Source: Verrucomicrobiales bacterium
GTDB taxonomy: Bacteria; Verrucomicrobiota; Verrucomicrobiia; Verrucomicrobiales; DEV007
Length of the DNA: 64,000 bases
Direction of reading: 5' to 3'
Assembly: GCA_002698785.1 (NCBI GenBank)
Contig: PAAG01000047.1
Span: forward strand, 124,001 to 188,000
A program made the translations under genes and the position numbers. The first letter of the stretch is position 1, and each line of letters starts with the position of its first letter. Below, piece by piece: positions 27,976-40,541 of this stretch. Below the pieces are notes generated by a model, which made no database searches, was not told the origin of the DNA, and worked only from the letters and a program-made list of their open reading frames with translations.

Positions 27976-28728
27976 TTGGAACTTCCTTTCGATGCCACCT
28001 GGATCGTAATCGCGCTCGCCTCTCTTGGAGCGCTCAGCCTTGGTATCTCCAAGACCGGCTTTCCCGGACTGGCGATTGTGAACGTCCTGCTGATCGCTGA
28101 GCTTTTCGGGGCGAAAAACAGTGTAGGGATTATTCTGCCAATGTTGGTAGTGTGCGACTTCATCGTGCTTCCCCTGTTCTGGAAGCATGCGACCTGGCGG
28201 CAGATCTGGCCGCTCGTGCCCGTAACGTTTGCCGCAATTGTCGGTTCGTGGTGGCTGCTGGATTCTTTTGATGACACTACTGCCCGACGCGTGATCGGAG
28301 GGATCATTCTTCTGATGTTCGTTCTCCAACTGCTGCGTGAGTTTAAAAAGGAATTTCTCGAACACTTGCCCGACTCTCGCATCTTCCGCTGGATCAGTTG
28401 CTTATTGATTGGGGTTTCTACGATGCTGGCCAACGCAGCAGGGCCTGTCTATTCGATCTACGGTCTCGTTCACAAGATGCCCAAGATGACATTCCTCGGT
28501 ATCGGCGCTCGTTTTTTCCTGCTGGTCAATCTTTTCAAGATGCCGTTCCTGGGCCAACTCGACCTTATCAATAAGGAGTCGCTGTTGCTCAACCTACTAC
28601 TTTTGCCGGCTCTTCTGGTCGGGATTTTTTCGGGTCGAAAATTGATTCATCTTGTTCCCCAACGAGCGTTCGAGATCCTGCTTTATGTCTTTTCTGCGAT
28701 CGCAGCGATTCGAATGCTGTTTTTCTGA
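27976..28728 (+). CDS. TauE/SafE (TSUP) family membrane exporter
   Basis: The 250-residue protein has about seven or eight membrane segments, GALSLGISKTGFPGLAIVNV near residues 14-33 (the family's first conserved loop), and a related second half beginning near LLIGVSTMLANAAGPV. TSUP proteins export sulfite, sulfoacetate or other small organic anions. The start is a TTG at 27976; AGGGGC lies upstream. No sulfur-metabolism gene is next to it, so the transported anion is not predictable. Confidence 0.82.
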   Translation: MELPFDATWIVIALASLGALSLGISKTGFPGLAIVNVLLIAELFGAKNSVGIILPMLVVCDFIVLPLFWKHATWRQIWPLVPVTFAAIVGSWWLLDSFDDTTARRVIGGIILLMFVLQLLREFKKEFLEHLPDSRIFRWISCLLIGVSTMLANAAGPVYSIYGLVHKMPKMTFLGIGARFFLLVNLFKMPFLGQLDLINKESLLLNLLLLPALLVGIFSGRKLIHLVPQRAFEILLYVFSAIAAIRMLFF

Positions 28729-28730
28729 TC

Positions 28731-29918
28731 CTATTGTGCTGGCTGCGCGGCCCTCTGTTCGGGAGACTTCGAGTGAAAGAAGATTCCGGAGAATTGCCAT
28801 GTGCCGGTTTCCTTGAGGAAGGTGAGCGTAGCATAGGCTGGCTCGGCAGGTGTGGGAATGAGCACTTCGATAACCAGTGGTTTCGACACTTCTCCGGTCA
28901 GCTCGGAACTGAGGACTTTGGCCTCTGCAGGCTTCCATGAGGAAAAATCGACTTCGTTGCCGGTGAAGGCGGGGAAGCTCGATTCGAAGTTCTGCAGTGG
29001 GACGACTTCCTGAAAGAATGGAGCTGCTTCCGCGTAGAACGAATCGAGGTTTTTCTCCGCCAAGCCGCTGAACAGCTTCGTCAGGGAAGAGCGGGCCAAC
29101 TCGGTAGCCTCCTCGGATGACGGCTTTTCTGTGCTGGGTTCCGGATTAAAAAACTGGAGTTGCCAGCGGCTCGGCCAAGGATCCGAATTGGGCTCGCCCC
29201 AGAGAGAGACGAACTCAAGAAGGAGTCGACGCTTGAGGTCCGGATAGTCGACCACAAAGTGATAACGTGCGAGTTCGCCATTCATGCTCGCAGGTTTCCC
29301 GGGCTGGACACGGTCAACGAACTCAGACACAGGTCCGTAAGGGGAGGCATCGAGTTGCTCAACAATGCTCACGAGGACGTCGTCGCCGAAAGTCTGGCGG
29401 TGAATGACACTGATCTCGTCGAGATATGGGCCAAAATTTCCGGAGGCTATGCTATCAGCTACGCGCTGGAGAGTTCCTGTGGCAAGCTTCGTCGCGGCCT
29501 CGGGATCTTTTACCGGCGGAAGACCAGAAGTTCCGAAAGTACGGACTCTAAAATAAGACATACCATATCCCTCGCCCTCCTTGGCTATACCAATTGTCAC
29601 CTGGCGCCCCTTCCCTTCACTGTTTTTGGCTTTCCCTTTGATTGTGAGACTCGTCCCGTCGTCTGAAGCCGTGCCCTTGGTAATTTCGAAAGACTTCAGA
29701 TCTCCCGCATCCATCTCCGCCACAAACTTCTCGAACTGCTCCATCGAGTTAACACTCTTGAATTTCTGCGAGGCGCCTTGATAGGCTGCTTCATTTTCTC
29801 CCTTCATCACTTGTTCGATGAAAGAGAGTGCCGCTACCACGCCGGGATGGGTTTCTTGAGAAAGCGCGGTAAACGGAAGAAAAATAGACAGCAACAGAAA
29901 TGGGAAAGCGGTTCTCAT
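28731..29918 (-). CDS. Secreted protein with three NTF2-like repeats
   Basis: After a signal peptide (about 1-20) the 395-residue protein appears to contain three copies of the same unit: about 24-130, 140-260 and 268-385. Each copy begins with a helix of the type AxxFxxxhxxGNxxxhY followed by a hydrophobic segment with Phe (FEKFVAEM, FGDDVLVSIVEQL, FESSFPAF). This is typical of DUF3887/NTF2-like folds that bind small ligands or serve as assembly modules. Function is unknown. It converges with the TSUP gene, two bases apart. Confidence 0.6.
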   Translation of the reverse strand: MRTAFPFLLLSIFLPFTALSQETHPGVVAALSFIEQVMKGENEAAYQGASQKFKSVNSMEQFEKFVAEMDAGDLKSFEITKGTASDDGTSLTIKGKAKNSEGKGRQVTIGIAKEGEGYGMSYFRVRTFGTSGLPPVKDPEAATKLATGTLQRVADSIASGNFGPYLDEISVIHRQTFGDDVLVSIVEQLDASPYGPVSEFVDRVQPGKPASMNGELARYHFVVDYPDLKRRLLLEFVSLWGEPNSDPWPSRWQLQFFNPEPSTEKPSSEEATELARSSLTKLFSGLAEKNLDSFYAEAAPFFQEVVPLQNFESSFPAFTGNEVDFSSWKPAEAKVLSSELTGEVSKPLVIEVLIPTPAEPAYATLTFLKETGTWQFSGIFFHSKSPEQRAAQPAQ

Positions 29919-29964
29919 CTAGAGTGTGACGGGTTAGTGAGGTATCTATGCGGATTGATTTGAA

Positions 29965-31278
29965 TTAATTCCGGCGAAACTGCGTTAATGGAATACGGCT
30001 GTCGGAAAGATCGGTAATGAGTTGTCGGAAATCGGGTCGAGCCGCCATTTCTTCTGCGGTATCGACAAGGAACTTTCGCTGTTCTTCGTTGATTGAGAAT
30101 GCGGAGGCTTTTTTCGGATCGTGTTCCCAATCAAAGCGATACACGTGAAGCCTATTATCGAGGTCTTCCAGATCCAGAGCCGTCATCCATTGCAGGAGAA
30201 TGGATTCACTCCTCGCCTGGTTACGAAAAAGATAATCGGAGAGTTGATCGAACCCATTGTACTCTATCACTTCACTAAATTTTCGAGCTTCGTATTCGTT
30301 GCCACAACCGAGCGAGATCAATACTACCTGTGCCCCGGGGTCTGCCTGCAACATACGAAGGGCCTCGATGGCACACAGTTCGATTGTAGAGTTCTGCGTG
30401 CCCTGCCCACCGTCTGCGAAAGCAGCACCCTTGCGAAGGTACGTTTCCCCATCGGCACGGACCTGCTTCATCGTCACCTCGGGAGCGAGTAGTTTTCCAA
30501 AATACACAGCAGCCGATAGAGCCGAAGCGCTGATGGCATCGATCAGTTGGATGTCCTCGGTGTTCACCGGTGAGTCCTCGCGCCTTTCATTACGAAGAAA
30601 TACAGTTTTCTTTCCCACAAGATCGTATGCAGCGAGAGAAAGGACCGGGACGCGATCCAGTTCGCCCATTCGGACAGAAGGGTCGTAGAGACCGTGCTGA
30701 TCGATTGTTTCGATGAGCTTCTCCTGAAAGGCTTCGCGATCCAGCACATGTTGAAAGACCGGTGCCAGTGGTAATCGTCCTTCTCCCTGAAAGAGTGCAT
30801 ACCCTTTAGTGTAGTAAAAGTCGGCGATGTGCTCGCCAGGAACCCCAGCGGCAATGCCGCCTGTGATGATGGCCCCAGTACTCGTTCCGCTACAGACAGA
30901 AAGGACATCGCAGAGGCGCGCATTCGGCATGCCGGGGCGCTGGTGAATCGCTGCTTCAATTTTGTGGACGAGACGAGACGGGGCGATCCCCATGATTCCC
31001 CCACCATCAATCTGGAGAATGACATAGGTTCTCCGGCCTTTCTGCAATGGCTTGGGCTGTTGCAGCGATTCGCCCGATCCTTCCTGCTTGTCCCACTTGC
31101 TCCGATCTTCCACATCAGACAGCGCACCGTATCCGAACTCGGACATCGGGTGATCGTTCTGCACGAACTTACCTATGAACTCGTATGATGCGCATCCCGA
31201 TTGCAGCAAAACTGCGCACACAAGTGCAAGTTGGGCGAGAGAAACGACAAGGCGCCTCCCTATCGGGTCGCGGTTCAT
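29965..31278 (-). CDS. Patatin-like phospholipase lipoprotein
   Basis: The 437-residue protein starts with a signal ending in the lipobox LLQSGCASY, followed by a patatin domain: QIDGGGIMGIAP for the anion-hole loop, GTSTGAIITGG for the nucleophile Ser, and FADGG for the catalytic Asp. The usual Arg of DGGGxRG is replaced by Met (IDGGGIMG). It should hydrolyse acyl esters of phospholipids at the cell envelope. I begin at the ATG at 31278, directly before the signal peptide; the same frame stays open for 544 more codons upstream but is antisense to a real gene. Confidence 0.82.
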   Translation of the reverse strand: MNRDPIGRRLVVSLAQLALVCAVLLQSGCASYEFIGKFVQNDHPMSEFGYGALSDVEDRSKWDKQEGSGESLQQPKPLQKGRRTYVILQIDGGGIMGIAPSRLVHKIEAAIHQRPGMPNARLCDVLSVCSGTSTGAIITGGIAAGVPGEHIADFYYTKGYALFQGEGRLPLAPVFQHVLDREAFQEKLIETIDQHGLYDPSVRMGELDRVPVLSLAAYDLVGKKTVFLRNERREDSPVNTEDIQLIDAISASALSAAVYFGKLLAPEVTMKQVRADGETYLRKGAAFADGGQGTQNSTIELCAIEALRMLQADPGAQVVLISLGCGNEYEARKFSEVIEYNGFDQLSDYLFRNQARSESILLQWMTALDLEDLDNRLHVYRFDWEHDPKKASAFSINEEQRKFLVDTAEEMAARPDFRQLITDLSDSRIPLTQFRRN

Positions 31279-31455
31279 GAAATCACCGTGACACCCGAAA
31301 GTAGAAACGCAAAGAGAGGTTTCGGGTTTCTCGGTAGCATGCCCGGAGTATGGATACTTGTCCCGATTCTGGAGCCGATTGCGAAACGTCCGAGACAGAC
31401 AATGAAAAACAGTTAGGCTAGCTTCCCATCCCCCAAACTGCCACAATCGCTCTAC

Positions 31456-32964
31456 ATGACGGAAACAGAAACAAAGAAACGCAACTTTTCCTGGTCGTTC
31501 TGGCTTCTTCCCTCGGTCATTTTTGTTGTGTTGATGGTGTTTTCTCGCCAAACCGTTTTTCGGTTTGCTGGCTATGATTTGTCCAAGCCGGACTATTGGA
31601 TTCCGCTTCTCGTCGGGGCTTTTTGTCTGCTCGTGGCCTGGTGGGGATTGCTGCAAAAAAGTCGACCGAAACCCATTCGTGTTGCGGCCAAGTCGGTTTT
31701 TGGTCTTGTTGCACTGTGTATCATTTATGTGCTTGTGAGCCCAATCCCCTGGGTTCGATTTCAAATTTTCCGCTACGAAACACTTCATGGAAACCTTGGA
31801 GTCACCCATCGGGAAGATGGACTTCGAGAGGAGTTGGTGGATGAGCTGCTCAAGCCGGGAATCGGGCCGCGAATTGCGCGCGATCTGGAGCTCTTGCGAG
31901 TGCTTGTGCTCGAACACGGAGAAGAGTTTCGTGGGGAACCGAGGTCTGCGCAGGTGGCCTACGCCGGCCTCAGGGTGGACGGAATGACGTTCGATGAAAT
32001 CCTCAATCAACACGGAGCGAAGGAGTTTCTCTCTGCTGTCCTTCACTCCGAGGCCAACACCAGCGCCTGGTTCGGGCTCGACGATTACCCTCGTCCTAAT
32101 CTGGAACCTGATCCAAACCATGGTTTCTACGCCGGTCTTCTCACTCAAGAGGAAGCGCAGAAGGTCGTGATCCACGAGCGATCCCTCGACCGGGAGGACT
32201 CGCTCGATCACACCGCCTTCTTCTTTGTCAATTTCCCTACCCTGTTTGACGACATTGCCCGAGAAAATCTGGAGGCACAGTGGATCGGCCGTTTTCCCGA
32301 GATGGAAGAGTATGCGGAGCTCGGATTTCGCCTGATCGACGAATTGAGAAATGCTGTTGGAGAAAACTCTCCTGCAACCGTCGCCATTTCTGCTACGCCG
32401 GAGCGTTACTTGAGACCATCTGAGTGGGAACGTAACCGAATGAAACCAACCATCGAGCAGACTCTTCTTGGTCTCGTACGGATGATCGCCCCTAATGTTG
32501 AATTGGTTGAAGATGGAGATGCGGACCTTCAACTGGAAGCGGTAGCCAGCCTCTCCCAGACTTTTGACCGTGTCGTGCCGGTCTATGTGGGAGAGACGGT
32601 CAGGGTCCCGGCAGGGCGAAGATATGTTGGACGAGGAGTCGGACTTACTACTTACCGCAAAGAGTACCGAACCAAACAGGTCGGCACCAAAACAGAAGGG
32701 GTGCTCGATGCTTCGATCATCCTTGAGATCGGTGGAGGCGAGGAGCCCATTGTAATAGGAGAAGAACTTTACTATTGGTACGACGCCATTGTGGCCGCCA
32801 AGAAAAACAGTGGGGCAGATGCGAACGGTCAGCGGGTTGACTGGCGCAGGCTTTACGGCCTCTACGGGAAGCGCATCTGGCCGATCGGGCTGAAAGAGGA
32901 CATGTTTCATTTTGATGGGCCTGTGGAGGAGATCGTTTATTCCGAGGATTTGTCAGAGGAGTGA
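31456..32964 (+). CDS. Membrane-anchored protein of unknown function
   Basis: The 502-residue protein has three hydrophobic segments in its first 110 residues (FWLLPSVIFVVLMVF, WIPLLVGAFCLLVAWWG and VFGLVALCIIYVLV) followed by an extracytoplasmic part of about 390 residues with no recognised domain. GRGVGLTTYRKEYRTKQVG near 395-413 and the acidic C-terminus are notable. It lies divergent from the patatin gene with 177 bases between. Its codons show a long open antisense frame, noted among rejected observations. Confidence 0.65.
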   Translation: MTETETKKRNFSWSFWLLPSVIFVVLMVFSRQTVFRFAGYDLSKPDYWIPLLVGAFCLLVAWWGLLQKSRPKPIRVAAKSVFGLVALCIIYVLVSPIPWVRFQIFRYETLHGNLGVTHREDGLREELVDELLKPGIGPRIARDLELLRVLVLEHGEEFRGEPRSAQVAYAGLRVDGMTFDEILNQHGAKEFLSAVLHSEANTSAWFGLDDYPRPNLEPDPNHGFYAGLLTQEEAQKVVIHERSLDREDSLDHTAFFFVNFPTLFDDIARENLEAQWIGRFPEMEEYAELGFRLIDELRNAVGENSPATVAISATPERYLRPSEWERNRMKPTIEQTLLGLVRMIAPNVELVEDGDADLQLEAVASLSQTFDRVVPVYVGETVRVPAGRRYVGRGVGLTTYRKEYRTKQVGTKTEGVLDASIILEIGGGEEPIVIGEELYYWYDAIVAAKKNSGADANGQRVDWRRLYGLYGKRIWPIGLKEDMFHFDGPVEEIVYSEDLSEE

Positions 32965-33298
32965 AGGGAAGTGATCACCGGTTGATTTGATGGAGCTCGA
33001 AGTTCTGGGGAGTATGAGTATGATTATGAAGAGGAGCAGGAGGCGGAAAATGATGGGAAAAGAGGGGGATTTGCGTTTTCCCTCATTTTGCTGGTCGATT
33101 CCCCTTACCTGATTGAATGTGAATGTGTTGTGGTGTTTTTATGGTCTTTCATATTGATGCATTCTGCCTCATTTCTGGATTTTTGGGGCGCAGAAGCGAG
33201 AGACGTGGCGCGAACGGTTGACGAAGTCTGGCGAGAGAGATCGAGCCATGATAATACTAACATACCCACAATAAAAGATCGAGCTTGAAAACGACCCT
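32965..33298. other. Gene-free interval
   Basis: I see no convincing gene, RNA or repeat in these 334 bases. A 66-codon ORF (33088-33288) has no ribosome binding site and no recognisable protein pattern. The interval presumably holds the promoter of the DUF4013 gene. Confidence 0.5.
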
Positions 33299-34003
33299 AT
33301 GGCCTGCTCGGGCAGAGGGAGTTTTGTTGACGTGGGTTTATTGTGGGCTCCCTTTGTTGCAATGCCAGAACGACAGGAGATCGATCTTTCTACGCCGCTT
33401 CGACTTGGGACGGCGTTTCGGTATCCGCTGCAGTCTGGACTGGCGCGGAAAGAGATCGTGATCGGCGCTCTGTGGTTGTTCGTGCCGGTGATTGGCTGGC
33501 TTTTGAATATGGGACACCGGATTGCGATGGTTCATCAAATGCAGCATGGAAAGTCTGCCTGGCCGGCGTGGACCGATTACCGGTCGCTATTGAAACACGG
33601 GACGGTGACCTTTGTGGGGATGGTGGAGTATCATGCTCCGGCGGTGATCTGTGGTGCTGCGGCGTGGTATTTTGAAATTCCGGTTCTGTATGTCCCAGCC
33701 GTGGTCCTGTGGATTGTCGCGACGATTGCGGTGCCGGGATATATGTCGCACTACTGCTACCAGCTCGATCCCTGGGAGGTGTTCAATCCGGTTCGGGCGC
33801 TCCGACGCGTTTGGGAAGGTGGCCGGGCCTATTGGCATGCGTGGGGTATTGCGCTCGCGGCTCTGGCCTGTTCGTTTTCCGGGCTGCTCGTTTTTGGGGT
33901 GGGCTTTCTCGTGACGAGCGTGTGGTTCTGGCAGGTGGCTGGGTTTTCGTTTGCGACGGTGTTTTCGGAGCGGTTTCGGCTTTGTGAGAGTGGTGAGGTA
34001 TGA
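33299..34003 (+). CDS. DUF4013 membrane protein
   Basis: The 234-residue protein has four to five membrane segments and the family pattern of DUF4013: KEIVIGALWLFVPVIGWLLNMG near residues 51-72, WPAWTDYRSLLKHG, and a late segment PVRALRRVWEGGRAYWHAW. It is an integral membrane protein of unknown role, frequent in Planctomycetota and Verrucomicrobiota. Two starts are possible: the ATG at 33299 or the one at 33362, which begins at MPERQEID and fits the usual family length better. Neither has a clear ribosome binding site. Confidence 0.72.
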   Translation: MACSGRGSFVDVGLLWAPFVAMPERQEIDLSTPLRLGTAFRYPLQSGLARKEIVIGALWLFVPVIGWLLNMGHRIAMVHQMQHGKSAWPAWTDYRSLLKHGTVTFVGMVEYHAPAVICGAAAWYFEIPVLYVPAVVLWIVATIAVPGYMSHYCYQLDPWEVFNPVRALRRVWEGGRAYWHAWGIALAALACSFSGLLVFGVGFLVTSVWFWQVAGFSFATVFSERFRLCESGEV

Positions 34004-34044
34004 ACAGAGGCTTCTGCGGTTGGCATTTACCCTTCGAACGTGAG

Positions 34045-34060
34045 ACAGGCAATCGCCTGT
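34045..34060. repeat. Perfect inverted repeat between DUF4013 and ATPase genes
   Basis: ACAGGC and GCCTGT flank a 4-base loop (AATC). There is no T-run after it, so it may be an operator or a weak terminator for the DUF4013 gene rather than a classic terminator. Confidence 0.4.
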
Positions 34061-34078
34061 GGAATTAATACGTTATTA

Positions 34079-34106
34079 TTGACGCGCGTCGGAAACGACG
34101 TATGTT
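34079..34106 (+). promoter_or_regulatory. Promoter of the ATPase pair with a dyad in the spacer
   Basis: TTGACG at 34079-34084 and TATGTT at 34101-34106 are 16 bases apart. The spacer contains the dyad CGTCG-GAAA-CGACG (34087-34100), which could be an operator. The ATG at 34113 follows the -10 hexamer by six bases, so the transcript is probably leaderless; no Shine-Dalgarno sequence is present. Confidence 0.5.
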
Positions 34107-34112
34107 GTTTGC

Positions 34113-35306
34113 ATGAAGTCGAACCCGGGTGGCCAGCTTGCACCAGAAGAGATCCTCGGTCGGGATGAATTTATTGCCGAATTATGGGAGATCCTGGCAG
34201 GCCGGAACGTCTATATGAATGATCTCCGAAGAATTGGCAAGACAATGATTATCAATAAGATGGAGGCAGAACCACCGCCGGGTTGGGTCGTTCTAAAAAG
34301 GGATCTCGGCGGACTGCGGACTGCTTCCGAATTCGCAACGCGCGTGTTTCGCGATGCCAATTCTCTGCTTAGCATCAAAAAGCGATCTCTGCGCCGAATG
34401 ACAGATTTGATTGGCTCAGTGGAAGAGATTGCTGGCGTATTGAAGCTGAAAAACGGAAGTGTAGCACCTTGGAAAGAAGTTCTATCCCGCACCTTCGCCG
34501 ACCTCGATGAAGACTATAAAACGTCGGAAGAGAGAATCGTATTTTTCTGGGACGAAGTTCCTTTTCTTCTCGATAACATTCGCACCGACGAAGGACCGGC
34601 GCGAGCGATGGAAGTTCTCGATACGCTGCGATCACTTACGCAGGATTACCCCAGCATTCGACTTCTTCTTACCGGGTCTGTCGGGATTCACCACGTGCTC
34701 ACGGAACTACGCCGAGACGGATATAATAACTCCCCCTTAAACACGTTCGAGCGAGTAGCTCCCGGTCCCCTTGATCGTGGCGACGCGATCTACCTCGCGG
34801 ACCAGTTATTACTTGGAGAAAAATTGAAGGTTCCCGAGCGTGGCGATGCTTCAGAGTGCATCGCGTCCCTGACCGGAGATGTTCCCTTTTACATTCACCG
34901 ACTTGTTTCGAGAATGCCAAAGTCGAAGGAAGTAACTCCGGCCTCGCTCCATGACAAATTGGAGAGCGAACTTATCGCTGCTGACAACGACTGGGATCTT
35001 GCCCACTACCGTAATCGCCTGACAAAATACTATCCCAACGGAAATGACGAGACCGTGGTCCTCTCTATTCTCGACAGTCTTTCAGGTGAGGCGGGCGGAC
35101 TCCCTGTTGCCGATCTGATGAACCGGGTGAAATCCACGGTCCCGAAAACTGACGATGAACAGATACGATCATTGCTAAAGCTTCTTTTGGCCGATCATTA
35201 TCTCGTTCGAAATTCCCGCAATCGCTACACTTTCCGCCTCGAAATCGTCCGCCGCTGGTGGGGGGGGGGATCGCGGACTGTAATCCTGACCATTCGACTT
35301 TCATGA
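34113..35306 (+). CDS. STAND/AAA-type ATPase, first gene of a two-gene system
   Basis: The 397-residue protein has an altered P-loop, NDLRRIGKTM (36-45), in which the first Gly of GPRRIGKT is replaced; a Walker B-like strand FFWDEVPFLL near residues 146-155; a sensor strand LLLTGSVGIHHVL near 188-200; and a helical, winged-helix-like C-terminal region (about 310-385). The last codons run through a tract of ten G (35260-35269). As read, the gene ends in TGA overlapping the next ATG. With one G fewer it would end as WWGGDRGL about 24 bases earlier. It probably acts with the following ATPase; the biological role is unknown, and defence or stress signalling are guesses. Confidence 0.72.
   Translation: MKSNPGGQLAPEEILGRDEFIAELWEILAGRNVYMNDLRRIGKTMIINKMEAEPPPGWVVLKRDLGGLRTASEFATRVFRDANSLLSIKKRSLRRMTDLIGSVEEIAGVLKLKNGSVAPWKEVLSRTFADLDEDYKTSEERIVFFWDEVPFLLDNIRTDEGPARAMEVLDTLRSLTQDYPSIRLLLTGSVGIHHVLTELRRDGYNNSPLNTFERVAPGPLDRGDAIYLADQLLLGEKLKVPERGDASECIASLTGDVPFYIHRLVSRMPKSKEVTPASLHDKLESELIAADNDWDLAHYRNRLTKYYPNGNDETVVLSILDSLSGEAGGLPVADLMNRVKSTVPKTDDEQIRSLLKLLLADHYLVRNSRNRYTFRLEIVRRWWGGGSRTVILTIRLS
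35260..35269 (+). repeat. Homopolymer tract of ten G at the gene junction
   Basis: Ten consecutive G bases lie inside the last codons of the first ATPase gene. Tracts of this length slip easily during replication, so the end of the first protein, and its coupling to the second, could vary between cells. A base-calling error in the tract is an alternative. Confidence 0.7.
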
Positions 35307-37723
35307 GTAAGATCAAACGCTTCTCACCCAACTGGTCGGATCCCAGGGCACTCGAAGCCATCACCGTGGCGCGGGAGGGCCTTATCTCCGGGGCGGTCGA
35401 CTCCGTTCGTGAAAGCGCCCTGACAAAGAATAAACATCACCTTCTTTTTGTCGGCCCCAGGGGCTCAGGAAAGACCCACCTCATTACGCTCGTTCGGCAT
35501 CGCCTGCTTGGTATGCCTAAGGTGATGAAAAAGTTGCGCATCGCCTGGCTTAACGAAGATGAAACGAGCGACTCCGTTCTTTCCCTTCTCTTACGAATTC
35601 ATCGTGCGCTTTCGAAGGTTTACCCATCGGAGTTTCCAACCGACTCGACCGAGAGCGTCTATGATCTCACCGATCGTTCTGCAGCACTCGAAGCCATAAC
35701 GGAACTCCTTCTGGAGCAGCTGAAGGAAAATACGGTTCTCGTGTTGATCGAGAATCTTGATGCTCTATTCGAGACATTCGGAGAAGGCGAGGAAAAGAAA
35801 TGGCGAGCGTTGATTCAGAACCACTCCCAATTCTGCACCGTCGCCACGGCCCAGCGACTGTTCCGCGGCGTCGCCGACCAAGATGCCCCCTTCTTCGGGT
35901 TCTTCCGGGTCGAGCACTTGAAGCCATTTACTGTTGGTGAAGCTACTGAGCTACTAGCAAAAGTTGCCGAGGAGAGAAAGGACAATGACCTAGCCGGATT
36001 CGTAGTTTCTTCCCGAGGTCGTGCTCGTATTCGCGCGCTCCACCATCTTACGGGCGGTAATCAGAGGCTATTCATTATTCTTTCCGAATTTATCAACCGC
36101 GAATCTTTGGAGACGTTGGTTGGACCTTTCGAAGAACTCGTGGACGAGCAGCTTACGCCCTATTACCAAGAACGGCTCCGCTGGCTTTCGCCCTTGCAGC
36201 GAAGAATCGTGGAATATCTCTGCTCTGTACCCAAGCCGCAACCGGTTAAAGCGATCGCCCGCCACCTTTTCAATTCCCAGCAAACGATCTCGAAGCAGTT
36301 GAGCGAGCTTCGAAACCTTCATTACGTCGAAAGTCGCCAACGCGGACGAGAATCGCTTTACGAACTCGCTGAGCCTCTCATGCGCCTGAGCCACGAAGTG
36401 AAAGAAGCGATGGGACAGACGCCTCTGCGGTTATTAGTGGATTTCCTGCGGGTTTGGTACGACCGGGAGGAACTGGAGAGGCGAGTAAAGGAGATACCTT
36501 CGAGTGAAACTATCACATTTGCCTATTTCTCTGAGGCTTGTGCTAGATCGCAAACTGAGGGTAGTTTGCTTGTTGAATTCCTTTCCGACGATGCGGCAGC
36601 GATTGACTTGAATAAGTGTAGCGATGAAGATTTGGAGCTTCTTCGCGATCTTCAGGATGAGTCTAAATCATGTGAAGATAAACTACGGTATAGTATTGCA
36701 TTGTATCTGAGAAACAAATCTCAGGAAGCACTAGTTCAAATCGAATTGATATTGAAAGAAGTTAATGTGCCAGATGAAAAGATGGATATGGCACGCTTAA
36801 TGCAAATTTCGTGTCTTGACCAACTTGGAAAAACAAGGGCGATGCAACGAGAAGTCAACGCAATCCTCAACGCCTCACAAACTTCGATTTCACTTAAAGC
36901 GAATGTTTTAGGATTTAGAGGGCTTCGCTGGCGCGATCTCGGAAAGTATAGCGAGGCAATTTCTGATCTGACGGAAGTTATCAATGCTAATACTCTTCCT
37001 TCACACCAACTTGCCCTAATTTATTTAGAGCGTGGCCTGATTCACGTTAGAGCGCAAAATCGAGAGAGCGCTATCAAAGATTTTTCTGCGTTAATCGATC
37101 AAGAGATGGGATCTGCGAAGACTACTGGGACAGCTCGCATTATGAGAGGATTCATCAATATGTTTAAGAATGAGAACACGGAATCCGCACTATGCGACTT
37201 CCAGACTCTTATCGACGAACCCGAACAATTCCCGGATAAGATGATTCGAGAGGCGCACCGAAAGAGTGCAATCATCAGGCTGAGCAGGGGCGAGTGGAAT
37301 CAAGCAAAAGCAAATCTTCGGCAAGGAATTTCGAAGGGCGAAAATGACGAAACGATCTTTTACCTCTATCTCATCTGCAACTTAGGTCACGATCATACAA
37401 TGTGGGCTCCGAATATCAGTGCCGTAGTAGATGTCTACGCTGAAAATGATTCTCTCACCGAACTTGGCGCTGGACTCGTTGAGAGTGTTAAATATTTCCA
37501 AGATATAAATCTTTCAAAGAAAGGAATGCTCGAATGGCAAAAACTGTGGGAAGATCATGCAAAGAAGCATCCCCAACTTGTACTTCCAGCCCGTCTGCTC
37601 AAAGTAGGAATTCAGTATTTCACCTCTGGAGAAAATGAGTCGGTGCTTCTCGACCTTCCTTCCGAAGAGAGAGAGATTCTTTCTCAAGCTCTCGGGTTGG
37701 ATAGCAGCACAGATAAGAAGTAA
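35303..37723 (+). CDS. Large ATPase with winged helix and TPR-like repeats, second gene of the system
   Basis: The 806-residue protein has an AAA/STAND-type nucleotide-binding region: Walker A GPRGSGKTH (51-59) and a Walker B-like LVLIENLDALF (about 139-149). A winged-helix region (about 295-350, with HLFNSQQTISKQLSELRNLHYVESRQRG) follows, then long helical repeats resembling TPR (about 480-690). The start is the ATG at 35303, which overlaps the preceding TGA (ATGA). The first half has base use like the neighbours, while the part after about 36500 is clearly AT-richer, a sign of transfer or recombination. NTP-driven oligomer signalling is plausible from the architecture; function is unknown. 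Confidence 0.75.
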   Translation: MSKIKRFSPNWSDPRALEAITVAREGLISGAVDSVRESALTKNKHHLLFVGPRGSGKTHLITLVRHRLLGMPKVMKKLRIAWLNEDETSDSVLSLLLRIHRALSKVYPSEFPTDSTESVYDLTDRSAALEAITELLLEQLKENTVLVLIENLDALFETFGEGEEKKWRALIQNHSQFCTVATAQRLFRGVADQDAPFFGFFRVEHLKPFTVGEATELLAKVAEERKDNDLAGFVVSSRGRARIRALHHLTGGNQRLFIILSEFINRESLETLVGPFEELVDEQLTPYYQERLRWLSPLQRRIVEYLCSVPKPQPVKAIARHLFNSQQTISKQLSELRNLHYVESRQRGRESLYELAEPLMRLSHEVKEAMGQTPLRLLVDFLRVWYDREELERRVKEIPSSETITFAYFSEACARSQTEGSLLVEFLSDDAAAIDLNKCSDEDLELLRDLQDESKSCEDKLRYSIALYLRNKSQEALVQIELILKEVNVPDEKMDMARLMQISCLDQLGKTRAMQREVNAILNASQTSISLKANVLGFRGLRWRDLGKYSEAISDLTEVINANTLPSHQLALIYLERGLIHVRAQNRESAIKDFSALIDQEMGSAKTTGTARIMRGFINMFKNENTESALCDFQTLIDEPEQFPDKMIREAHRKSAIIRLSRGEWNQAKANLRQGISKGENDETIFYLYLICNLGHDHTMWAPNISAVVDVYAENDSLTELGAGLVESVKYFQDINLSKKGMLEWQKLWEDHAKKHPQLVLPARLLKVGIQYFTSGENESVLLDLPSEEREILSQALGLDSSTDKK

Positions 37724-37961
37724 ATCAGCTGCTTTTATATTCGCCCGTTTGGATTCGATTTCACTTCGTGAGCATTACTTTTTTTAACCCAAAGAGGGCT
37801 TAAAACCGGTGTCTTATCATCTCGTAGGAGCTTAAAAAATTTTTGAACAAAAAGATGCAATGAGGGTCTTATTCGTCAGCAATCAACCACTTGGAAGGTT
37901 GTGCTGAGGTACGAATTTCCTTCCTTCAACACGAACCGTAATTACCTTTTAGAAAGACCCC

Positions 37962-40541
37962 ATGAACCCGAACCAGTTTACTTTAAAATTACAGGAGGCC
38001 TTCCAGGCGGCCCAAAGCCTGGCGAATGACAGCAATCATGCCGAGCTGAGTAGTGTGCATCTTTTTGCGGCGCTGCTGGATCAGGCGGATGGCGTGACGA
38101 AGCCGATTCTCTCGAAGATCGGTGCGGATACGGAGGCGCTCGATTATGAGATCGAGGGTCTGCTAGGTAAGTTGCCTTCAGTAGAAGGGAATGCCGGACA
38201 ACAAGTTTACCTAAGCTCGGATCTGCGCGCTGTCATTAATACGGCGGAGAAGCTCCGCGGAAAGATGAAGGACGACTACACGAGTGTGGAGCACGTTCTT
38301 CTTGCGATTGCGCAGGAGGGAAATGCGGACCTGAAGGCGCTGCTGAAGCGGCATGGTGTCGATGAGAAATCGATCGAGAATGCGATTGTCTCGGTGCGTG
38401 GAAATCAGCGGGTGACGGATCAGGATCCGGAAGGCAAATACCAGGCGCTGGAGAAGTATGGGACGGATCTGACGGCGATTGCGCGTCAGGGCAAGATCGA
38501 TCCGATCATCGGACGCGATGAGGAGATTCGCCGGGTTATGCAGATTCTTTCCCGCCGGACGAAGAATAATCCGGTGCTGATCGGCGAACCTGGTGTGGGT
38601 AAGACTGCGATCGCGGAGGGGCTGGCGCGAAGGATCGTGAGCGGTGACGTTCCTGATTCTTTGAAGAACAAGCGTCTGATCGCGATGGACATCGGATCAA
38701 TGATCGCGGGTGCGAAGTATCGCGGTGAATTCGAGGACAGACTGAAGGCGTTTTTGAAAGAGGTGACGGCCAGTGAGGGTGAGATCATTCTCTTTATCGA
38801 TGAGCTGCACACGATCGTGGGTGCAGGTGCCAGCGAAGGTGCGGTGGATGCCTCGAACATGCTGAAGCCTCAGTTGGCTCGCGGTGAGCTGCGGACGATC
38901 GGTGCGACGACGTTGGATGAGTATCGTAAGTATATCGAAAAGGATGCGGCGCTGGAGCGGCGTTTCCAGCCGGTGACGGTGGACGAGCCGAGTGCGGAGG
39001 ATACGATCGCGATTCTGCGGGGTATCAAGGAGCGCTACGAGGTGCACCACGGGGTGCGGATCAAGGACTCGGCTCTGGTGGCGGCGGCTACGCTAAGCGA
39101 TCGCTATATCGCGGATCGTTTTCTCCCTGACAAAGCGGTCGATTTGATCGATGAGGCGGCTTCGCGTTTGAAGATCGAGTTGGATAGTCTTCCGACGGAG
39201 ATCGATCAACTGGAGCGCCAGAGTATGCAGTTGGAGATGGAGCGTCAGGCTTTGACGAAGGAGAAAGACGATGCATCGAAAGCTCGCCTGGAGAAGGTGG
39301 AGAAGGAGATCGCCGATTTGAAAGAGAAGGCGGATGCCCTGAAGGCTTCGTGGCACAACGAGAAGTCGGTGATCGACAAGGCGAACGTCGTTCAGGAAGA
39401 AATCGAGAAGCTGAAGATGGAGCTGGAGCAGGCGCAGCGCGAGGGCAACCTCGGTCGTGCCAGTGAGATCCAGTATGGTCTTTTGCCGAACAAGGAAGAA
39501 GAGCTGAAGACGGCTCAGGAAGAACTGCACAAGATGCAGGGATCGTCCCGCCTTTTGAAAGAAGAAGTGACGGAAGAGGATATTGCGGAAGTGGTGAGCT
39601 CTTGGACGCACATCCCGGTGTCACGATTGCAAGAGGGCGAACGTTCGAAGCTGGTGAGCATGGAAGAGCGTATCGGCGAACGTGTGATCGGCCAGAAGAA
39701 AGCGATCGAGGCGGTGTCGAATGCGGTGCGTCGCGCTCGTGCGGGGCTACAGGATGAGAATCGGCCGATTGGGTCTTTCCTTTTCCTGGGACCGACGGGT
39801 GTGGGTAAGACGGAGCTTTCACGCTCGCTGGCGGAGTTTCTCTTCGACGACGAGAATGCGATGGTGCGCATCGACATGAGTGAATACATGGAGAAGCATG
39901 CGGTCGCGAGACTGATCGGTGCGCCTCCGGGATATGTCGGCTATGAAGAAGGCGGACAGCTTTCTGAAACGGTGCGACGCAAGCCCTACTCGGTCGTTCT
40001 TTTCGACGAGGTGGAGAAGGCACACCCGGATGTTTTCAACGTGCTGCTGCAAGTGCTGGACGATGGACGAATCACAGACGGCCAAGGTCGGACGGTGGAT
40101 TTCCGGAATACGGTGATCATCATGACAAGCAACATCGGCTCGGAATTTATCATGAGCGAGACGAATCCGGAGCAGCGTGAGGCGCTGGTGATGGAGGCGT
40201 TGCGAGGGCATTTCCGACCGGAGTTCCTCAACCGGGTGGATGAAACGATTATCTTCGACCGCCTGACGGAGGAAGATCTGAAGGAGATCGTGACGGTGCA
40301 GATGGCTCGAGTCGTGAAGCGTCTCACGGCGCAGGGGCTGACCCTGGATATGTCGGAAGGTGCACTCGCCCAGCTGGCAACAGAGGGATACGACCCGGCC
40401 TATGGTGCCCGTCCTTTGAAACGGACGATCCAGAAGCGCCTGCTGGATCCGCTGTCACTGGACTTGCTGGATGGGAAGTTCAAGGACGGGGATACGATCC
40501 ACGTGGATGTGGATGGTGGGAAGTTTGTCTTCACCAAGTGA
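37962..40541 (+). CDS. clpB: ATP-dependent protein disaggregase ClpB
   Basis: The 859-residue protein matches ClpB in length and full architecture: an N-terminal Clp repeat domain (1-145), a first AAA+ module with GEPGVGKTA and [12 protein letters not shown], the long coiled-coil middle domain (about 400-530), and a second AAA+ module with GPTGVGKTE and [13 protein letters not shown]. The coiled-coil middle domain separates it from ClpA and ClpC. With the DnaK system it rescues aggregated proteins. It is monocistronic, 238 bases after the ATPase pair, and ends before a strong bidirectional terminator. Confidence 0.97.

What the first reader, a model, noticed from the sequence alone, without database searches (positions are those of the whole stretch)
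34113..37723. Two-gene ATPase system with altered P-loop, winged helix and TPR, function unknown
A small STAND/AAA-like ATPase with an atypical P-loop (NDLRRIGKT) is translationally coupled to an 806-residue ATPase with a normal P-loop, a winged helix and long helical repeats. The architecture (NTPase, DNA-binding-like domain, repeat sensor) is that of signal-transduction ATPases used in defence or regulation, but I recognise no named system. Base use shifts to AT-rich within the second gene.
Basis: partly seen in the sequence, partly recalled or inferred. Interest (0 to 1): 0.7.

Follow-up and report, generated by a model that had tools for sequence, protein, structure and literature searches.

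The report
Self-regulated mobile pair of ATPase genes
Two adjacent bacterial genes encode partner ATPases, one with a fast-changing repeat region that looks like a sensor, and they occur together across several bacterial phyla with a shared DNA switch at their promoter; the pair appears to be unnamed and may be a defence sensor, though its trigger and action are unknown.

Summary
P1 (34113-35306, 397 aa) and P2 (35303-37723, 806 aa) overlap by ATGA. A full-length P1 lies upstream of P2 in 48 of 59 loci from seven phylum-level groups. Both models show the STAND/ORC-Cdc6 ATPase-plus-winged-helix fold; only P2 has TPRs, and no effector domain was recognised. P1's odd P-loop is a family trait (first Gly replaced in 47 of 48). 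P2 has Asn at the catalytic-Glu position in 38 of 38.

New here:
(1) P2's repeat array is hypervariable (67-723 aa; less conserved than the core in 170 of 170 compared pairs).
(2) A 34-bp tandem palindromic element, TACGT-N8-ACGTACGT-N8-ACGTA, overlaps a sigma70-like promoter upstream of P1. In leave-one-out scans it is the best site of the locus in 42 of 49 (33 at 25 bits or more), including the window. The operon is therefore probably autoregulated.
(3) The pair lies in a 9.2-kb insertion between tauE and clpB; these two genes are neighbours in 5 of 19 examined same-genus stretches.

Best reading: a mobile, autorepressed two-ATPase sensor module, probably for genome conflict. Defence is not shown: known defence genes are not enriched nearby, and trigger, output and DNA binding are untested.

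The parts
34069..34102 (+). Tandem palindromic element, putative operator (two 18-bp palindromes, 16-bp period, centre CGCG in place of the common GTAC)
   Evidence: Best-scoring site of the 64-kb window with a matrix trained on 31 other loci (29.4 bits); 2 of 4 matches of ACGNNCGTN8ACGTA in the 7.0-Mb genome. The window does not meet the stricter one-mismatch palindrome test
34079..34106 (+). Sigma70-like promoter TTGACG-16-TATGTT overlapping the element; 6 nt separate the -10 hexamer from the start codon, so the mRNA may be leaderless (inference)
   Evidence: Consensus scan (5 promoter-like sites in the region, 3.5 expected by shuffling, so weak alone); same layout in homologues
34113..35306 (+). 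P1: STAND/ORC-Cdc6-type NTPase plus C-terminal winged helix, 397 aa
34221..34244 (+). P1 P-loop DLRRIGKT (residues 37-44); first Gly replaced
   Evidence: 47 of 48 sequences lack the first Gly; R40, G42, K43 in 48 of 48
34551..34556 (+). P1 Walker B Asp147-Glu148
   Evidence: 48 of 48 sequences
35303..37723 (+). P2: NTPase - ArsR-like winged helix - TPR array - conserved C-terminal cap, 806 aa
35453..35476 (+). P2 P-loop GPRGSGKT (residues 51-58)
   Evidence: G51, R53, G54, G56, K57 in 38 of 38
35750..35761 (+). P2 Walker B ENLD (residues 150-153); Asn at the catalytic Glu position
   Evidence: E150 N151 in 38 of 38
36188..36382 (+). P2 winged helix, residues 296-360
   Evidence: NF033788 ArsR/SmtB E=1.3e-9, below its curated cut-off; PADLOC Csa3 6.6e-8
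36575..37402 (+). P2 hypervariable TPR array, residues 425-700, AT-rich
37403..37720 (+). P2 conserved C-terminal cap, residues 701-806
   Evidence: Mean pairwise identity 0.35 against 0.22 for the repeats
28731..37961 (.). 9.2-kb lineage-specific insertion between tauE (27976-28728) and clpB (37962-40541) that contains the pair
   Evidence: tauE and clpB are neighbours (114-199 bp between the matches) in 5 of 19 fetched same-genus stretches and have one ORF between them in 3 more

Best explanation
P1 and P2 form a two-protein STAND/ORC-Cdc6-type ATPase switch that represses its own promoter and moves between genomes as a self-contained unit, most likely serving genome conflict. At rest P2, alone or with P1, sits through its ArsR-like winged helix on tandem palindromes that cover the -35 to -10 region of the operon and keeps it low (element shown by conservation; binding and repression inferred). 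The trigger is read by P2's fast-changing TPR array (inferred from variability). Trigger binding changes the nucleotide state. P1 keeps the Walker B Asp-Glu and P2 has Asn in place of the catalytic Glu, so P1 is proposed as the hydrolysing partner and P2 as the ATP-holding switch in a mixed assembly (inferred). Release from the operator would raise P1 and P2 levels, and the assembled complex would act on an unknown target. No nuclease, NADase, protease or membrane domain was recognised, so the output step is open.
For: Pairing: full-length P1 upstream of P2 in 48 of 59 loci; P1 and P2-core identities correlate, r = 0.89 over 33 loci, 0 of 2000 permutations as high (shows joint inheritance, not contact). 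Operator: palindrome with exactly 8-bp spacer (at most 1 mismatch) upstream of P1 in 31 of 50, against 10 sites in 735 kb elsewhere in those loci; spacers 2-7 and 9-11 give 0-1. Top site of the locus in 42 of 49 by leave-one-out, 33 of them at 25 bits or more. In G000 the 11-base pattern has 4 matches, 2 of them here, so this search shows no wider regulon. The winged helix matches DNA-binding ArsR/Csa3 domains by sequence. Folds: P1 best 2qen Z 26.8 and 2fna Z 24.7, then NLR resistosome and CED-4 NTPases Z 19-22; P2 best ORC2 Z 21.4 plus a TPR superhelix. Repeats vary far more than the core. Mobility: empty site in congeners; phyla mixed in the tree; up to three P1 relatives per genome. Two distant relatives lie in conflict-type loci.
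Against: No enrichment of PADLOC families within 3 kb. No conserved third gene and no effector domain. No P2 relative in viral contigs, no P1 relative in phage records (P2 was not searched there), and plasmid matches are distant only (about 22-30% identity). Covariation between operator type and P2's winged helix is not above that of the rest of the core, so which protein binds is not resolved. Of the 18 loci not used to train the matrix 11 have the promoter as top site, but only 3 (window, L110, L138) at 25 bits or more. A clade including L094, L101, L103, L111, L118, L124 and L145 keeps the pair with at most a degenerate element. The loci are related, so they are not independent tests. TPR arrays often drift in length without immune selection (own knowledge).
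Confidence: 0.55

Rival explanations
1. A toxin-antitoxin-like addiction pair: two overlapping genes, autorepressed through tandem palindromes, mobile and with no fixed neighbours; one ATPase is harmful alone and the other restrains it.
For: Two-gene overlap, conserved promoter element, stand-alone, patchy.
Against: Both proteins are large NTPases with no toxin domain recognised. P1 is broken or shortened beside P2 in several loci (L100, L114, L123, L130, L132, L147), with no clear lone-gene pattern. A 67-723 aa hypervariable region is not typical of toxin-antitoxin pairs (own knowledge).
Confidence: 0.15
2. A MalT-like cellular signal transducer: P2 senses a metabolite or protein through TPRs and regulates its own and perhaps host genes; not a defence module.
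For: NTPase - winged helix - TPR order is that of STAND regulators (own knowledge). Conserved promoter element.
Against: The 11-base pattern occurs 4 times in the genome, 2 of them here, and about 3 are expected by chance in 7 Mb (estimate mine; a looser pattern was not tried). No fixed neighbour genes. Cross-phylum spread and repeat hypervariability do not suit a conserved metabolic ligand.
Confidence: 0.15
3. A relic or minimal replication or partition initiator: ORC/Cdc6-like proteins bind iteron-like repeats at their own gene, as plasmid initiators do.
For: ORC2 and Cdc6/Orc1 are among the best folds; tandem repeats with 16-bp period lie upstream.
Against: Only one to three repeats were found, on -35/-10-like elements. 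The pair lies on a 780-kb contig beside clpB here, and plasmid hits are distant only.
Confidence: 0.05
4. Ordinary drift: two unremarkable ATPases, with TPR variation and AT shift being neutral repeat turnover.
For: TPR arrays expand and contract readily (own knowledge). The AT shift is family-wide (mean GC3 drop 10.5 points in the other 37; window 15.2, rank 10 of 38), so it is no sign of a recent swap in this copy.
Against: It does not explain the conserved promoter element, strict pairing or cross-phylum spread.
Confidence: 0.1

Closest known systems
Archaeal STAND/MNS-type ATPases (PDB 2fna SSO1545, 2qen PABY2304; the label MNS is recalled)
   Same: P1 has the same NTPase-plus-winged-helix fold over its length (Z 24.7-26.8) and is found by profile (2fna 3.3e-9, 2qen 1.4e-6).
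   Different: Those were solved as single proteins; P1 is tied to a second ATPase gene and lacks the first P-loop Gly.
ORC/Cdc6 initiators (1w5t ORC2, 2qby Cdc6/Orc1 heterodimer)
   Same: P2's NTPase and winged helix match best (1w5t Z 21.4); a paired ATPase near repeated DNA sites at its own locus.
   Different: P2 has TPRs, Asn at the catalytic Glu, an ArsR-like winged helix, and a promoter element instead of an origin.
STAND immune receptors (NLR resistosomes, CED-4/Apaf-1; bacterial Avs)
   Same: NTPase, winged helix, then superstructure-forming repeats with high variability.
   Different: No N-terminal effector; DNA-binding-like winged helix with a promoter element; a second ATPase subunit. 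Avs is compared from own knowledge.
Mobile Orc/Cdc6 conflict loci with a second Orc/Cdc6 of intact Walker A and disrupted Walker B (PMC10853773, passages seen)
   Same: Two ORC/Cdc6-type ATPases in one operon, one with an altered Walker B, in mobile settings.
   Different: Those also carry a KAP NTPase, and related ones carry REase or HerA partners; no third gene is conserved here. Whether they are homologous was not tested.
MADS mad8 (PADLOC PDLC04140)
   Same: P2's NTPase region matches weakly (2.1e-5).
   Different: Not an orthologue by that score; no mad gene set accompanies the pair.

Membership tests
STAND NTPases | ORC/Cdc6-clade P-loop NTPase followed by a winged helix | tested here: met
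   P1 and P2 models match 2fna, 2qen, ORC2, CED-4 and NLR NTPases over about 300-335 residues.
STAND NTPases | GxP motif after the NTPase core | tested here: inconclusive
   P1 P258 is 90% or more conserved. P2 has G251 G252 invariant and N253 nearly so, but the following Pro varies (Q in the window).
STAND NTPases | C-terminal superstructure-forming repeats | tested here: met
   P2 TPRs by Pfam and model; P1 model shows none.
Avs / NLR-like defence receptors | Fused effector domain | tested here: not met
   P2's P-loop starts at residue 51 and P1's at 37; no effector family found.
Avs / NLR-like defence receptors | Stops phage after recognising a phage protein | not testable with these tools
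   No experiment possible.
MADS | mad1-mad8 gene set | tested here: not met
   No third gene conserved next to the pair. The mad3, mad8 and mad2 matches among 125 neighbours are few, and mad2 and mad3 occur among the 91 controls too.
ORC/Cdc6 replication initiators | Binds an origin and loads helicase | not tested
   Fold similarity only.
ArsR/SmtB regulators | Whole protein meets the curated family score | tested here: not met
   NF033788 37.7 bits, cut-off 55; only the winged helix is ArsR-like.
Toxin-antitoxin modules | Autoregulated two-gene operon | tested here: inconclusive
   Conserved promoter element and overlap support autoregulation; binding untested.
Toxin-antitoxin modules | One product toxic, the other neutralising | not testable with these tools
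   Needs expression assays.

The most novel reading that the evidence does not exclude
A previously undescribed prokaryotic immune receptor type: a two-ATPase STAND/ORC module that is its own repressor, in which a hypervariable, AT-rich TPR cassette between a constant NTPase/winged-helix core and a constant C-terminal cap provides invader recognition, and in which trigger binding both frees the promoter and arms the complex. Clades carry their own operator types, so the DNA-reading part may diversify with the operon.
Probability: 0.3. Interest if true: 0.8.

Novelty: new variant of a known kind. Interest (0 to 1): 0.62.

Why it matters
If the reading is right, it joins three jobs usually kept apart (sensor, switch and transcriptional repressor) in one mobile gene pair, and offers a simple system for testing how repeat arrays gain new targets. 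The promoter element gives an immediate, sequence-level handle: a 34-bp DNA that should bind the protein, and a reporter that should respond to the trigger, turning an uncharacterised ATPase pair into a screenable sensor.

Tried and rejected
Defence-island association: PADLOC scan at 1e-10 of 125 of 127 neighbour proteins (160 aa or more, within 3 kb) at 31 of the 59 loci, two very long ones left out for the residue limit, against 91 of 152 more distal ones (those beyond 5 kb) of the same loci. At most about 10 against about 8 proteins, read from the family tables, of which one search shows 25 of 28. No enrichment.

Conserved third gene: all-against-all comparison of the genes in 30 fetched stretches and the window; the largest other cluster has 5 members.

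Mobile-element ends: no direct or inverted repeats of 18 bp or more in 28500-38200. RNA families at gathering threshold: none in the window. tRNA: none.

Operator-winged-helix covariation: with hand-assigned operator classes, winged-helix columns do not separate them better than the rest of the core (0.360 against 0.385). Recognition-helix columns are slightly higher (0.420), but this is confounded with clade.

General palindrome test against approximate dinucleotide shuffles is weak for the close group: 10 of 28 chosen loci at 5% or better, and the window itself is not significant (24 of 100 shuffles as good). The distant group gives 7 of 12, one of which (L069) owes it to a palindrome away from the promoter-like one. 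The motif-based tests carry the claim; the motif was first seen in these same upstream regions, and only the leave-one-out scan guards against that.

Recent TPR swap in this copy: not supported as special, because GC3 falls from core to repeats in 35 of 38 proteins.

Operator in viral contigs: 3 exact matches, one inside a repetitive stretch (L212); one search found no P2 relative in that collection. Taken as near chance.

Papers: searches listed no paper that I recognised as naming this pair. PMC12839542, PMC10853773, PMC7159879 and PMC8195603 were seen as passages only; the others only as listings.

Rows dropped: the P1 alignment A3 leaves out L106 and L142, and A4 leaves out L100, L106, L114 and L142 (near copies or broken). 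L087 and near copies were dropped. Phylum tallies come from record titles, most of them MAGs.
Full report
Observation. P1 (34113-35306) and P2 (ATG at 35303, end 37723) are open, overlap by ATGA and read as stated. P1 alone has no significant Pfam match and no PADLOC, NCBIfam or PDB sequence match up to E = 1 (three Pfam rows at 0.14-0.2). A 28-member profile finds the archaeal ATPases 2fna (3.3e-9) and 2qen (1.4e-6), and members of the family match AAA_22 (18 of 28) and AAA_16 (12 of 28). P2 matches AAA_22/AAA_16 weakly, ArsR-type winged helices (NF033788 1.3e-9, below cut-off; PADLOC Csa3 6.6e-8) and TPRs.

Structure. AlphaFold2 models are confident (P1 mean pLDDT 92.9, pTM 0.90; P2 90.7, pTM 0.76). 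P1 aligns over its length with 2qen (Z 26.8, rmsd 4.0, 335 aligned) and 2fna (Z 24.7, rmsd 4.3, 336 aligned), then with plant resistosome and CED-4 NTPases. P2 residues 1-370 align best with ORC2 (Z 21.4, rmsd 4.2, 325 aligned) and 2fna; residues from about 420 to 760 match TPR superhelices. Both are thus STAND/ORC-Cdc6-type NTPases with a winged helix. P2 has the repeats, and neither has a recognised effector.

Motifs. In 48 P1 sequences the first P-loop Gly is A (33), D (13), S (1) or G (1), while R40, G42, K43, D147 and E148 are invariant. In 38 P2 sequences GxRGxGK is invariant and the Walker B is E150-N151 in all 38, so Asn stands where the catalytic Glu is expected.

Pairing and spread. 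A pattern-seeded scan of the 84,980-species genome collection with the P2 alignment gave 59 loci: 21 Verrucomicrobiota, 19 Pseudomonadota, 14 Planctomycetota, 2 Myxococcota, and one each of Acidobacteriota, Kiritimatiellota and SAR324. It is not exhaustive. A full-length P1 (380 aa or more, with the C-terminal Trp motif, or an open full-length frame by tblastn) lies upstream in 48 of 59. Of the other 11, L132 and L146 have a somewhat shorter P1; L100, L114, L123 and L130 a truncated or split one; L092 and L143 are cut by the contig end; L147 keeps the C-terminal part; L148 and L149 are P2 fragments without P1. P1 and P2-core identities correlate (Pearson r = 0.89, Spearman 0.77, 33 loci, 0 of 2000 permutations). 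In the window's order the same 27 of 189 genomes have P1 and an ATPase-bearing P2 relative. In the phylum, 11 of 387 genomes match the P2 profile at 1e-30, a lower bound because two candidates per genome were scored. The P1 tree mixes phyla: the Verrucomicrobiota label needs 8 changes, at least 5 of them forced by starred branches (a quick tree, and such counts are no proof of transfer). Most records are MAGs, but strain genomes such as Cerasicoccus frondis, Thiorhodococcus drewsii, Methylomonas methanica and Thiobaca trueperi carry it too.

Setting. I fetched stretches around clpB from 19 same-genus genomes. In five, tauE and clpB are neighbours (114-199 bp between the matches); in three, one ORF lies between them; in the other 11 no tauE was seen in the stretch, which was short in some. 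In the window 9.2 kb with six genes lies there, the pair included. No gene besides P1 and P2 recurs broadly in the flanks of relatives. PADLOC families are not enriched nearby.

Hypervariable repeats. Across 38 P2 proteins the part aligned to residues 426-699 spans 67-723 aa (median 292), while the core (421-504 aa, start-site choice included) and the cap (100-144 aa) vary little. In 170 homologue pairs with core identity of at least 62%, repeat identity is lower than core identity in 170 of 170 and lower than cap identity in 165 (means: core 0.71, repeats 0.38, cap 0.53). Extreme cases are L116 and L084 (core 0.88, repeats 0.34) and Methylolobus L104 and Methylotetracoccus L123 (core 0.95, repeats 390 and 78 aa, though L123's P1 is cut short).

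Operator. Reading P1 upstream regions side by side showed a shared DNA element: two 18-bp palindromes TACGT-N8-ACGTA, 16 bp apart, covering a TTGAC-like -35 box and running into a -10-like box. The exact 8-bp spacer (at most one mismatch) occurs in 31 of 50 upstream regions, against 10 sites in 735 kb of the rest of the same loci; spacers 2-7 and 9-11 occur in 0 or 1, and 13-19 in 0-3. Spacer 12 (23 of 50) most likely follows from the tandem layout. With a leave-one-out matrix from 31 loci (34-bp consensus TACGTtAaTaTTGACGTACGTTAAATTTGACGTA), the P1 promoter is the best position of the whole locus in 42 of 49, in 33 of them at 25 bits or more. The window, not in the training set, scores 29.4 bits at -44, best of 64 kb. 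Of the 18 loci outside the training set 11 are top, but 8 of these at 2-15 bits; two more (L119, L120) have a 36-38-bit site 271 bp upstream of the called start. A Verrucomicrobiota-rich clade seems to have lost the full element. In the whole genome the core pattern has four matches, two of them here. Distant clades carry other palindromes near the same place, for example ATTCATATGAAT twice in L072 and L075 (7 of 12 distant upstreams beat 95% of shuffles). In 12 of 31 loci the start codon lies 5-9 nt after the -10-like box, 6 nt in the window, so a leaderless mRNA is plausible there.

Distant relatives in conflict loci. A Moraxella osloensis plasmid carries a P1-like and P2-like pair followed by dUTPase, PRTase-CE, ORC-CDC6-like, a triple-CARF protein and an N6-methylase. 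An Agrobacterium plasmid carries a lone P2-like protein divergent from two adenylate/guanylate-cyclase genes, of which the one scanned matches PADLOC Pycsar models, and an E1-E2 gene. A third plasmid looked at, in Mycobacterium intracellulare, shows a P2-like gene with no such neighbours in its annotation. These are hand-picked cases, not a rate.

Verdict. The pair is real, conserved, mobile and apparently unnamed; its autoregulation is strongly indicated by the promoter element and untested biochemically. A conflict role is the most likely purpose (overall about 0.55 for the full statement), but trigger and output are unknown.

Noticed in passing
window 29968-31230 (-): Patatin-like phospholipase (Pfam 9e-12) whose upstream reading suggests a lipoprotein signal (by eye); it lies in the same tauE-clpB insertion.
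   Followed up: partly
window 28734-29918 (-) and 31456-32961 (+): Two proteins of the same insertion without a Pfam match at 0.01 (395 and 502 aa).
   Followed up: no
L151 8884-17560: Moraxella osloensis plasmid operon: P1-like, P2-like, dUTPase, PRTase-CE, ORC-CDC6-like, triple CARF, N6-methylase; looks like a multi-gene conflict system.
   Followed up: partly
L152 3283-11192: Agrobacterium plasmid: 1078-aa NTPase - winged helix - TPR protein divergent from two adenylate/guanylate-cyclase genes (the one scanned matches Pycsar cyclase models) and an E1-E2 gene.
   Followed up: partly
L113 3361-8649: Two P1 genes in tandem before one P2 (Gemmataceae MAG).
   Followed up: no
L061, L064, L065, L068, L071, L072, L075 upstream of P1: Distant clades carry different palindromes at the P1 promoter region, as if operator and DNA-reading domain changed together.
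   Followed up: partly
L119 and L120, 271 bp upstream of the called P1 start: Full-strength element (36-38 bits) further upstream than usual, perhaps with a small leader gene between.
   Followed up: no
L213 852-885 and L214 4850-4883: Exact matches of the tandem palindrome pattern in two viral contigs in which no P2 relative was found; in L214 just upstream of a small secreted-looking ORF. Chance not excluded.
   Followed up: partly
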